Source of the DNA: an uncultured Pelagibacteraceae bacterium | Lineage (GTDB): Bacteria > Pseudomonadota > Alphaproteobacteria > Pelagibacterales > AG-422-B15 | DNA: 52,047 nucleotides | Direction: 5' to 3' | NCBI GenBank assembly: GCA_902524795.1 | Contig: CABZEU010000008.1 | Location: forward strand, 1-52,047 | Shown here: one piece after another, positions 20,316 through 52,047 of the stretch | Layout: every line of letters begins with the position of its first letter | Position numbering within the stretch: the stretch's first letter is position 1 | Notes under the pieces: model-generated | The model's database searches: none | What the model was told of the DNA's origin: nothing | The model's input: the letters and a program-made list of their open reading frames with translations, nothing else | Made by a program: the position numbers and the translations under genes

Positions 20316-20392
20316 TGGCGCGCCGGGAGAGATTCGAACTCCCGACCCCCAGATTCGTAGTCTGGTGCTCTATCCAGCTGAGCCACCGGCGC
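20316..20392 (-). tRNA. tRNA-Arg (anticodon ACG)
   Basis: A 77-nt tRNA on the minus strand. The acceptor arms GCGCCGG and CCGGCGC pair perfectly, followed by G and an encoded CCA. The D-arm is GCTCAGCTGGATAGAGC. The anticodon stem CCAGA/TCTGG encloses the loop CTACGAA, giving anticodon ACG, in which A34 is normally deaminated to inosine to read CGN codons. The T-arm contains GTTCGAATC. It lies between the DMT permease and the DedA-like gene. Confidence 0.97.
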
Positions 20393-34993: not shown

Positions 34994-35011
34994 CTATATA
35001 TATTAATACTG

Positions 35012-35103
35012 TGGGAGATTAAAGTAACCCAAATATCATCGTTGCGGCTGCTTCTTTTCAGACCTGACCGGATTGGCGAATAACTTGTCTACTCAATCTC
35101 CCA
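35012..35103 (-). ncRNA. ffs: Signal recognition particle RNA, small bacterial (4.5S) type
   Basis: The minus strand encodes a hairpin RNA of about 92 nt. Its tip contains GGTCAGGTCTGAAAAGAAGC followed by AGCC, matching the conserved SRP core GGTCAGGTCCGGAAGGAAGCAGCC with a slightly altered tetraloop (TGAA for CGGA or similar). The terminal arms TGGGAGATT and AATCTCCCA pair perfectly over nine bases. It should bind Ffh for cotranslational targeting. It lies directly upstream of dnaX, a common alphaproteobacterial order. The ends are approximate, placed from the outer stem. Confidence 0.93.
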
Positions 35104-35107
35104 AAAT

Positions 35108-49849: not shown

Positions 49850-50596
49850 ATGGAGACGAATTTTGAGCTAGATGATCCAAACTATTACAGCATGAAATTT
49901 GGATTAATCGTACTGCAAAGTGATGAGACAATTGAGCAAGAAATTAGAAGCACGCTTGATGAAAGTATGGCCATTTATCACTCAAGGATCCCGTGTGACC
50001 AATCTGTCAATAATGAAAATCTTGCAAAAATGGAAAATGATTTACCAATTGCAGTGCATCTACTCCCAAAAATTGACTTTAACAGTATTGGATATGCATG
50101 TACCTCTGGTGCAACAGTAATTGGCTCTGAAAAAATAAATAAATTAATTAAAGAGCAACATAAAAATGCTTTTATAACAGATCCAATAAGAGCGGTTAAG
50201 GAAGCGCTTAATAGCTTTGGATGCAAGAATATTGCATTTGTTTCACCCTATGAACAATCTATAACTCAAAAACTCAAACAAAATCTTCAGAGTGATAATT
50301 TTAATATATCAAACGAGAAATCATTTAATGAGTCTAATGACACAGTAGTGGCAAGAATATCTGAAAAAGATAGTTTGAGAGAAATATTAGAAATTGGAAA
50401 AAATAATTGTGATGCAGTATTTATTTCATGCACAAATTTGAAAACATTTAAAATAATAGATGAAGCAGAACGCTTACTGAATAAACCTGTTGTATCTTCA
50501 AACCAGGCAATGATATGGCATATGTTTCGTGGTTCTGGAAATGACTCAACAAAAGGGCCTGGGATGCTTTTTAAACAGAGTCTAACTAAGAGCTAA
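49850..50596 (+). CDS. Maleate isomerase / arylmalonate decarboxylase family (Asp/Glu racemase superfamily)
   Basis: A 248-residue protein with two active-site cysteine motifs: YACTSGATVIG (Cys84) and FISCTNLKTF (Cys194). Two cysteines in these places are found in maleate isomerases and Asp/Glu racemases; arylmalonate decarboxylase keeps only the second. A late KPVVSSNQAMIWHMF is also typical. The reaction here is probably a cis-trans isomerisation or racemisation of a small dicarboxylate. Tight spacing to the carboxyltransferase gene suggests one pathway. Its 3' end overlaps the convergent LysE-family gene by 15 bases. Confidence 0.87.
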   Translation: METNFELDDPNYYSMKFGLIVLQSDETIEQEIRSTLDESMAIYHSRIPCDQSVNNENLAKMENDLPIAVHLLPKIDFNSIGYACTSGATVIGSEKINKLIKEQHKNAFITDPIRAVKEALNSFGCKNIAFVSPYEQSITQKLKQNLQSDNFNISNEKSFNESNDTVVARISEKDSLREILEIGKNNCDAVFISCTNLKTFKIIDEAERLLNKPVVSSNQAMIWHMFRGSGNDSTKGPGMLFKQSLTKS

Positions 50597-51208
50597 CCAA
50601 ATTCCAACGCCTACCATTAGTAAACCAGCTAAACGATTTATTGATTGAATATTTTTTTGTTTCTTCAAGATAATACCAAGGATCTGTCCGCCAGTTGCAT
50701 AAATCATTAAAGATATGAATTCTATTATTAAAATGATGACGACTAATGCTGACATCTGAGGCATGAGCGCTAAGTCATAATTGATAAATGCGGGTACCAT
50801 AGCAATAAAAAAAGCCCATCCCTTAGGGTTGGCAACTGCAGTAATAAAGCCCTGACTTGCTAGCTTTAAAAAATTAATTTCAAAAGAATGTGTTCCATCT
50901 ATGTTTAATGCTAATGACCCTCTTGAATTGAACATTTGATAGCCAACAAACATCAAATAAATTCCTCCCCCATATTTAAAAAAGAGAAATGTCATTGGAT
51001 ATGATGAAATAATTGCACCACCACCAATAACTGCACTTCCAGCAACAATTAAGACACCCAAAAGTTCCCCTACCATCATCTTCATCGTATTTTTAAGGCC
51101 AATGGTAATTCCCATAGTTAAAGCAAGAGTCATGCAAAGACCTGGAGTTATTGAAATAACAAAAAACAAAGGAATAAAAAAATAGAGAAGAGTGAAGTCT
51201 AAAAACAT
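50582..51208 (-). CDS. LysE/RhtB-family amino-acid exporter
   Basis: A 208-residue membrane protein with about six helices. The N-terminal LFFVISITPGLCMTLALTMG is the LysE-family signature, followed by GLKNTMKMMVGELLGVLIV and a middle YLMFVGYQMF. ANPKGWAFFIAMVPAFI is another family hallmark. These proteins export amino acids or related metabolites. A structured leader with an intrinsic terminator lies 36-140 bases upstream, so expression may depend on readthrough. The gene converges on the maleate isomerase-family gene with a 15-base overlap. Confidence 0.9.
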   Translation of the reverse strand: MFLDFTLLYFFIPLFFVISITPGLCMTLALTMGITIGLKNTMKMMVGELLGVLIVAGSAVIGGGAIISSYPMTFLFFKYGGGIYLMFVGYQMFNSRGSLALNIDGTHSFEINFLKLASQGFITAVANPKGWAFFIAMVPAFINYDLALMPQMSALVVIILIIEFISLMIYATGGQILGIILKKQKNIQSINRLAGLLMVGVGIWLALS

Positions 51209-51243: not shown

Positions 51244-51293
51244 AAAAAAAACGGGGCGCTACAAATACCCCGAAAGGTTTCTGTATCGCCCCG
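51244..51293 (-). terminator. Intrinsic terminator upstream of the LysE-family gene
   Basis: On the minus strand the arms CGGGGCG (51293-51287) and CGCCCCG (51258-51252) pair perfectly. Inside them TACA/TGTA and an ACC/GGGT segment extend the helix to a UUCG-type tip. Eight T residues follow at 51251-51244. This is the clearest intrinsic terminator in the window and is directed toward the LysE-family start codon 36 bases further on. Confidence 0.85.
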
Positions 51294-51300
51294 AAATTCC

Positions 51301-51321
51301 GGACAAACTCTGAACAAACTC
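51301..51321. repeat. Tandem 10-bp direct repeat GRACAAACTC
   Basis: GGACAAACTC (51301-51310) and GAACAAACTC (51312-51321) differ at one base and have an 11-bp period, about one helical turn. They lie within the leader of the LysE-family gene and may act in RNA pairing or as a protein-binding site. Confidence 0.6.
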
Positions 51322-51360
51322 CCCAAAAGGCTTTCGATCTTCGTTGTTCCGATAAATAAA

Positions 51361-51484
51361 CTTTATTATTTTTAAAAAAAATTTTAAAGCAAAAAAAAAT
51401 TATTTCCATTTCTTAACTTGTGGATAAGTGGAAAACTTATTTTGTAATAGAATCAATAAAATAATAAATAAATTTAATCTATAC
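51361..51484. other. Very AT-rich patch with a perfect DnaA-box sequence
   Basis: This stretch consists largely of A- and T-runs. TGTGGATAA at 51419-51427 is the exact complement of the DnaA box TTATCCACA. On the minus strand it is directly preceded by TTTTCCACT, a weaker match overlapping by one base. Two boxes beside an AT-rich patch are compatible with a replication-origin part or a DnaA-controlled site, but chance is not excluded. Confidence 0.35.
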
Positions 51485-52047
51485 TTAAGCAATTTTTCTT
51501 TTGATTGGTTTTTCAGTAATTGGAAAATGCATTAATGCGGAAACAAAACCAAGAATTACACATACCCACCACATGATATCGTATGAACCATAAAAATCAT
51601 AAAAACGGCCTCCAAACCAAGAGCCCATAAATGAACCAACTTGATGTGAGAGGAATGTAAAGCCATATAACATAGACATATATTTTGTGCCAAAAATTAC
51701 GGAAATAATTCCGCTAGTTAGAGGAACAGTTGATAGCCAAAGAATGCCTAACAATGCAGCAAAAATTAGTACAGTGATCTCAGTTTTAGGAAGAAAAATA
51801 AATACTAAGAATAAAACTGCACGAAGTGTGTATAAAATAACTAGAAGATTTTTTTTAGAATTTTGATCACCTAAATGGCCGAAATATAATGTTCCAAAAA
51901 CATTGAATAAACCAATCAAAGCGAGCGACCAAGAACTAATCCACAAAGGTAATGAGAGGTCGGTCAAATAAGCTGGTAAATGAGTTGCTACAAATGAAAC
52001 ATGAAAGCCGCATACAAAAAAACCAACTGTTAACAACACATAGCTTT
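51485..52047 (-). CDS. MFS transporter, C-terminal part (cut by window edge)
   Basis: The frame is open to the right end of the window, so only the C-terminal 187 or so residues are seen. They contain about six hydrophobic helices. GFFVCGFHVSFVATHLPAYL, GHLGDQNSKKNLL in a cytoplasmic loop and SHQVGSFMGSWFGGRFYD are typical of the monocarboxylate/oxalate-formate type of major facilitator. The substrate is unknown. The GTG at 52039 is internal to the frame and should not be taken as the start. Confidence 0.85.
   Translation of the reverse strand, partial: SYVLLTVGFFVCGFHVSFVATHLPAYLTDLSLPLWISSWSLALIGLFNVFGTLYFGHLGDQNSKKNLLVILYTLRAVLFLVFIFLPKTEITVLIFAALLGILWLSTVPLTSGIISVIFGTKYMSMLYGFTFLSHQVGSFMGSWFGGRFYDFYGSYDIMWWVCVILGFVSALMHFPITEKPIKRKIA

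What the first reader, a model, noticed from the sequence alone, without database searches (positions are those of the whole stretch)
51244..51349. Terminator-bearing structured leader ahead of a LysE-family exporter: possible new riboswitch or attenuator
Seen: a GC-richer block in an AT-rich gap, a perfect 7-bp stem (51252-51258 with 51287-51293) extended by inner pairs, eight T residues, and the start codon of the exporter 36 bases downstream. The 5' element GAACAA can pair with either of two consecutive near-identical copies (TTGTTC or TTGTCC), giving mutually exclusive folds. TTTCGGGG also occurs twice around the terminator. Known: intrinsic terminators in leaders of exporter genes often belong to metabolite-sensing RNAs. 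Inferred: the RNA may sense the exported compound. I recognise no known riboswitch core.
Basis: partly seen in the sequence, partly recalled or inferred. Interest (0 to 1): 0.72.

Follow-up and report, generated by a model that had tools for sequence, protein, structure and literature searches.

The report
DnaA-box-linked small RNA gene
In ocean bacteria of the SAR11 group, a conserved stretch of DNA with its own predicted promoter and terminator likely makes a small structured RNA of about 110 bases, likely controlled by the replication-starter protein DnaA, and is probably not a switch belonging to the exporter gene that happens to follow it.

Summary
The structured, terminator-bearing element is real (minus strand, 51353 to 51244) and conserved as RNA: 9 of 28 pairs show changes on both sides that keep pairing; 0 of 500 shuffles reach this. 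It is not tied to LysE. LysE follows it in 37 of 37 examined main-clade genomes, but in the three divergent genomes that carry it (G042, G043, G045) facing genes follow; in G042 LysE lies 5.4 kb away. What travels with the RNA lies upstream: a tandem DnaA-box-like pair ending 64-66 nt before it and a TANNNT hexamer ending 5-7 nt before it, each in 41 of 41 loci. Best reading: a stand-alone small-RNA gene without an Rfam family, probably controlled by DnaA. It is probably not the replication origin: the mnmE-to-parB cluster and the gene-orientation switch lie about 150-270 kb away in the best relative. Transcription, DnaA binding and targets are untested.

The parts
51419..51435 (-). tandem DnaA-box-like pair TTTTCCACT/TTATCCACA sharing one base (8-bp direct repeat)
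   Evidence: pair present with its end 64-66 nt before the RNA in 41 of 41 distinct loci; only match in the own genome (80% complete) at up to 2 mismatches
51383..51388 (-). predicted -35 element TTTAAA, 17-nt spacer
   Evidence: best of three spacings matches 4 of 6 of TTGACA in 36 of 41 loci, 3 of 6 in 5 (no shuffle control run)
51360..51365 (-). predicted -10 element TAAAGT
   Evidence: TANNNT ends 6 nt before the RNA in 34 of 41 loci and at 5-7 nt in 41 of 41; the best other single offset has 25, the best non-overlapping three-offset window 30
51244..51353 (-). small structured RNA (predicted start ATCGG, end in T8)
   Evidence: model R1 finds it in 42 of 53 genomes of the family; covariation
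51348..51351 (-). helix P1, 5' side (pairs with 51300-51303)
   Evidence: 83% of cells paired; one pair goes A-U to U-A and C-G but is unpaired in 13 of 28 distinct sequences
51315..51336 (-). hairpin P2 CGAAAGCCTTTTGGGGAGTTTG, most conserved internal block
   Evidence: 17 of 22 columns invariant over 28 distinct sequences; no changes on both sides
51300..51303 (-). helix P1, 3' side
51244..51293 (-). intrinsic terminator: stem-loop 51293-51252 and T run 51251-51244
   Evidence: 8 of 17 pairs with changes on both sides, 94.7% of cells paired
50582..51208 (-). neighbouring LysE-family exporter (Pfam PF01810), not part of the conserved unit
   Evidence: adjacency absent in G042, G043, G045
51485..52045 (-). 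neighbouring MFS transporter (cut by the contig end), upstream of the unit
   Evidence: still upstream in G042, replaced by an aldehyde dehydrogenase in G043 and by a c-type-cytochrome-like frame, named by eye only, in G045

Best explanation
This is likely a stand-alone small-RNA gene: a conserved DnaA-box-like pair and a predicted sigma-70 promoter stand upstream of a structured element of about 110 nt that ends in a predicted intrinsic terminator, and the RNA would be made independently of the LysE gene that follows. Shown by the calls: the unit (box pair, AT-rich spacer of fixed length with a -10-like hexamer, RNA, terminator) stays together while the downstream gene differs in three divergent genomes and the upstream gene in two of them, and the RNA pairs covary. 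Inferred: RNA polymerase starts at or near ATCGG and stops at T8; DnaA, whose box-reading motif is intact here, binds the pair centred about 74 bp upstream of the start and turns the promoter up or down with the replication state of the cell; the RNA then acts in trans, more probably by presenting its near-invariant hairpin to a protein than by Hfq-assisted pairing, because no Hfq was found and the unpaired linkers are among the least conserved parts. In the main clade some transcripts may read through into LysE.
For: RNA: fold z -3.1; model hits in 40 of 43 genus genomes, the three misses being 55-64% complete; 9 of 28 pairs with changes on both sides, 0 of 500 shuffles; several pairs are mostly G-U, which fits the minus strand as the RNA strand. 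Independence: downstream genes face the RNA in G042 (an 87-aa frame without Pfam match), G043 (a 77-aa frame without Pfam match, then DUF3299) and G045 (DUF3299); in G042 LysE is 5.4 kb on. Own promoter: -10-like hexamer at 5-7 nt in 41 of 41, -35-like TTTAAA. Box pair at a fixed distance in 41 of 41, unique in the own genome; DnaA with GRDHTT in 4 of 4 genomes. No Hfq and no CsrA in 5 of 5 genomes.
Against: No transcript data. The promoter is a consensus-level prediction in an AT-rich stretch, and the 41 loci are related, so counts are not independent. LysE follows in 37 of 37 examined main-clade genomes, and no good promoter is visible by eye in the 35 nt between. P2 has no covariation; P1 is weak (one pair unpaired in 13 of 28); the covariation alignment was fitted to the model. 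One divergent member (L163) does not fold better than shuffles (z -1.0). Only three genomes carry the independence argument. DnaA binding is inferred from sequence; another regulator could read the repeat.
Confidence: 0.66

Rival explanations
1. A cis-acting attenuator or riboswitch in the leader of LysE: the RNA senses a compound and lets polymerase pass the terminator.
For: LysE in the same orientation directly downstream in 37 of 37 examined main-clade genomes; strong conserved terminator between; little room for a separate LysE promoter (by eye); the first proposed pairing, GAACAA with TTGTTC, is present in 10 of 28 distinct sequences.
Against: RNA kept without LysE in G042, G043, G045, with facing genes downstream; the two-copy alternative is in 1 of 28 distinct sequences; no Rfam riboswitch; 55 of 80 fetched LysE loci lack it, among them two with LysE over 80% identical (L061 and L063).
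Confidence: 0.13
2. The unit is the chromosomal replication origin: DnaA boxes plus an AT-rich unwinding stretch, with a GC-rich hairpin beside it.
For: The only two boxes with at most one mismatch within 100 bp of each other in 960 kb of the best relative; AT-rich stretch of about 65 nt beside them; the full unit occurs once in each genome that has it.
Against: In G037 the mnmE-mnmG-rsmG-parA-parB cluster (about 411-417 kb) and the skew minimum and gene-orientation switch (340-460 kb) lie about 150-270 kb from the unit at 608.8 kb, though third-position skew corrected for gene strand is near zero throughout, so replication itself leaves no clear mark; no minus-to-plus skew change at the unit in the stretches read of four genomes; RNA absent from 13 of 13 sampled sister-family genomes and no exact box pair in 11 of 11; promoter and RNA-strand features.
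Confidence: 0.1
3. An ordinary transcription terminator of the upstream gene with chance structure in its 3' end.
For: The upstream gene is co-directional in the window and in G042, G043, G045.
Against: The upstream gene differs in G043 and G045; the 5' domain hairpin has 17 of 22 columns invariant; fixed promoter and box pair stand between the gene and the RNA.
Confidence: 0.06

Closest known systems
Intergenic trans-acting bacterial small RNA genes (general kind; e.g. the alphaproteobacterial mmgR/suhB, RF00519)
   Same: predicted own promoter, about 100 nt, hairpins ending in a rho-independent terminator
   Different: suhB scores 18.6 bits against a gathering score of 41; no Hfq found in these genomes; DnaA-box-like pair upstream
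Candidate motifs of Candidatus Pelagibacter ubique (Meyer et al. 2009, PMC2704228; abstract and section 10 read)
   Same: GC-rich block in a long intergenic gap of a SAR11 genome; their first potential motif is flanked by rhtB (a LysE-type translocator) and is directly followed by poly-U in about half of its cases; their fourth is suggested to be a separately transcribed RNA because its neighbours vary
   Different: the first is a single bulged hairpin, the fourth a three-stem junction; model R2 finds no relative of the present RNA below E 0.1 in 13 of 13 sampled genomes of the sister family. Their alignments were not seen, so homology was tested only through the model
Leader attenuators and riboswitches of exporter genes
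   Same: structured RNA and terminator before an exporter start codon in the main clade
   Different: the RNA is kept without the exporter elsewhere; no conserved two-copy alternative fold

Membership tests
Riboswitch/attenuator of LysE | linked to the same gene or pathway across genomes | tested here: not met
   linked in 37 of 37 examined main-clade genomes, unlinked in G042, G043, G045
Riboswitch/attenuator of LysE | conserved mutually exclusive folds | tested here: not met
Riboswitch/attenuator of LysE | terminator between sensor and start codon | tested here: met
Riboswitch/attenuator of LysE | match to a known riboswitch family | tested here: not met
   Rfam 15
Riboswitch/attenuator of LysE | ligand binding | not testable with these tools
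   needs in-line probing
Stand-alone sRNA gene | own promoter | tested here: met
   by sequence prediction only: positioned -10 in 41 of 41, -35 4/6 in 36 of 41
Stand-alone sRNA gene | own terminator | tested here: met
   by sequence and covariation
Stand-alone sRNA gene | conserved RNA structure with compensatory change | tested here: met
   mostly in the terminator helix
Stand-alone sRNA gene | independent of flanking genes | tested here: met
   three divergent genomes
Stand-alone sRNA gene | discrete transcript observed | not testable with these tools
   no RNA data
suhB/mmgR (RF00519) | score at or above the gathering cut-off | tested here: not met
   18.6 of 41 bits
DnaA-controlled promoter | boxes like TTATCCACA (consensus recalled) at a fixed place | tested here: met
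   41 of 41 loci
DnaA-controlled promoter | DnaA with the box-reading DHTT motif (motif recalled) | tested here: met
   4 of 4 genomes
DnaA-controlled promoter | DnaA binding and effect on transcription | not testable with these tools
   needs gel shift or DAP-seq and a reporter
Chromosomal origin oriC | at the strand-bias switch | tested here: not met
Chromosomal origin oriC | cluster of several DnaA boxes | tested here: inconclusive
   a pair only, but the closest good pair in 960 kb; groups of four looser boxes (2 mismatches) exist at four other places

The most novel reading that the evidence does not exclude
A replication-linked small RNA: DnaA itself drives or represses a dedicated sRNA gene through a tandem box pair fixed about 65 bp upstream, giving Hfq-less, streamlined SAR11 bacteria an RNA readout of the replication cycle.
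Probability: 0.3. Interest if true: 0.75.

Novelty: new member of a known kind. Interest (0 to 1): 0.5.

Why it matters
SAR11 bacteria are among the most abundant cells in the sea and keep few regulators (general knowledge). A conserved sRNA gene in relatives in which no Hfq was found, tied to a DnaA-type operator, would be an unusual direct link between replication control and RNA regulation, and it is a short, testable unit. It also shows that a convincing leader-riboswitch picture inside one clade can dissolve once divergent relatives are read.

Tried and rejected
LysE riboswitch: rejected because neither linkage nor switch is conserved. Replication origin: rejected on location, though the box pair is the closest good pair found. 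CsrA sponge (the RNA is rich in GGA): no CsrA in 5 of 5 genomes. Hfq-dependent sRNA: no Hfq in 5 of 5. Duplicated hairpin as the function: P2 and the terminator tip are alike in L002, L003, L016 and, in another register, L164 (0-1 of 60 shuffles as good), but not in L027 (8 of 60), L163 (31) or L165 (42). DnaA-box avoidance: TTATCCACA 4 times in 960 kb against a median of 10 for 400 same-composition words, 15.8% of them as low, so not significant. Viral copies: no exact match of a P2 pattern in viral contigs, no blastn match in the phage records. Meyer motif 4 through SOUL genes: 3 of 7 genomes had SOUL and no similar block was seen there; not informative. Ten one-mismatch box pairs in other genomes carry no such RNA behind them on reading by eye. 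Model R2 gave nothing below E 0.1 in g3 (5 genomes), g4 (2), G044 of g2 (79% complete) or the sister family (13); a second weak match in G042 (E 0.039, 19.5 bits) was not followed. R1 also matches the opposite strand weakly (30.5 against 128.4 bits in the own genome), as the terminator hairpin is nearly palindromic. For the 41-locus counts loci were taken by a sequence pattern, and duplicates and those with under 100 nt upstream were dropped. Target prediction by base pairing was not attempted. Paper searches for Pelagibacter small RNA/riboswitch, SAR11 oriC, DnaA-linked sRNA and SAR11 small RNAs (listings) showed no paper that names such a unit in its title or the start of its abstract; only PMC2704228 (abstract, section 10) and PMC5069720 (passages) were opened.

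Full report
What is there. On the minus strand of the window, 51353 to 51244, lies a GC-rich block in an AT-rich gap. It folds better than all 200 shuffles and ends in a 7-bp perfect outer stem and eight T. No Rfam family reaches its gathering score there; the best weak match is suhB at 18.6 of 41 bits. Record titles of the closest LysE loci name uncultured Pelagibacteraceae, so the window is from a SAR11-type bacterium.

Conservation. The gap is matched in 42 of 43 genomes of the genus by DNA comparison, G006 and G034 through short AT-rich stretches only. A covariance model of 30 sequences finds the RNA in 40 of 43 genus genomes and 2 of 10 others of the family, 42 of 53 in all; the misses in the genus are 55-64% complete. 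A second model (18 sequences, three of them divergent) finds nothing below E 0.1 in five g3, two g4 and 13 sampled sister-family genomes. On 41 aligned loci (28 distinct) 94.4% of cells are paired, 9 of 28 pairs have changes on both sides, 0 of 500 shuffles reach any of the five measures, and sliding gives 2-5 such pairs. That alignment was fitted to the model, which favours the structure. Support sits mainly in the terminator helix (8 pairs), plus one pair of P1 (A-U to U-A and C-G) that is unpaired in 13 of 28. Hairpin P2 is nearly invariant and so untested by covariation. Of six relatives folded alone, L163 is no better than shuffles (z -1.0) and the others have z -2.4 to -3.8. Several pairs are mostly G-U, which would be mismatches on the other strand, so the minus strand is probably the RNA strand.

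Not a LysE switch. LysE follows in 30 of 30 loci and in seven more genomes (37 of 37 examined; G016 and G036 carry the RNA but their loci were not looked at). In G042 of the same genus the MFS gene is still upstream, but a facing 87-aa frame follows and LysE is 5.4 kb on. In G043 an aldehyde dehydrogenase lies upstream and a facing 77-aa frame plus DUF3299 downstream; in G045 a c-type-cytochrome-like frame (by eye) upstream and a facing DUF3299 downstream.

What moves with it. Upstream of the RNA stands TWTCCAC[AT]TATCCACA or a close variant, two DnaA-box-like words overlapping by a base. Its end is 65 nt before the RNA in 31, 64 in 6 and 66 in 4 of 41 distinct loci, while the spacer sequence drifts. 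A TANNNT hexamer ends 6 nt before the RNA in 34 and within 5-7 nt in 41 of 41; the best other single offset has 25 and the best non-overlapping three-offset window 30. A TTGACA-like hexamer (TTTAAA in 29) 16-18 nt further up matches 4 of 6 in 36 of 41 (no control). This is the layout of a promoter with an upstream operator. The box consensus and the box-reading motif of DnaA are recalled knowledge; DnaA proteins of four genomes carry GRDHTT. The pair is the only match in the own genome, 80% complete, at up to 2 mismatches.

Not the origin. In the best relative (G037) the RNA is at 608.8 kb of contig C1. dnaA is at 490 kb; mnmE-mnmG-rsmG-parA-parB lie at about 411-417 kb (named from the translations by recall, no profile search); cumulative skew is lowest at 340-460 kb; and coding goes from mixed or minus-rich to plus-rich at about 360-440 kb. 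Third-position skew corrected for gene strand is near zero, so replication leaves no separate mark. Skew does not change from minus to plus at the unit in the stretches read of four genomes. Against this, the pair is the only one with two boxes of at most one mismatch within 100 bp in the 960 kb read, so the origin reading keeps some weight.

How it probably works. Inferred: DnaA, or another protein reading the repeat, controls a sigma-70 promoter; a 110-nt RNA is made and released at its terminator. The 5' end and P2 are the most conserved parts (5 of 6 and 17 of 22 columns invariant); the two linkers have 0 of 11 each and the 3' side of P1 0 of 4. With no Hfq and no CsrA found, a protein-binding role for P2 is my preferred guess, at low confidence. 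Meyer et al. 2009 (PMC2704228, abstract and section 10 read) describe a hairpin flanked by rhtB in P. ubique, followed by poly-U in about half of its cases, and another motif that may be a separate RNA; the architectures differ, and R2 finds no relative in the sampled sister-family genomes.

Noticed in passing
50582-50596: LysE (minus) and the arylmalonate-decarboxylase-like gene 49850-50596 (plus; Pfam Amdase) overlap tail to tail by 15 bases.
   Followed up: no
L027:1189-1540 and most of L018-L031: One clade has several hundred extra bases between the MFS gene and the box pair, including a conserved stretch with CTATTTATTATTTTCATGA and TCTTGGGG, not identified.
   Followed up: no
L148:850-1472: LysE of G032 appears in two tblastn pieces near its end; sequencing error or real change not known.
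   Followed up: no
L080-L132: LysE relatives at 51-73% identity lie in records named for gammaproteobacteria, Campylobacterota and others, suggesting wide horizontal spread of this exporter.
   Followed up: no
G037 C1 and C2 (960 kb read): Apart from the pair at the unit, only loose DnaA-box groups (2 mismatches, or one group of three) were found, none near the mnmE-parB cluster, so the true origin of this lineage is not recognised by boxes.
   Followed up: partly
35007-35105 and 20319-20392: Bacterial small SRP RNA and a tRNA, both minus strand, the only Rfam hits at gathering score in the window.
   Followed up: no
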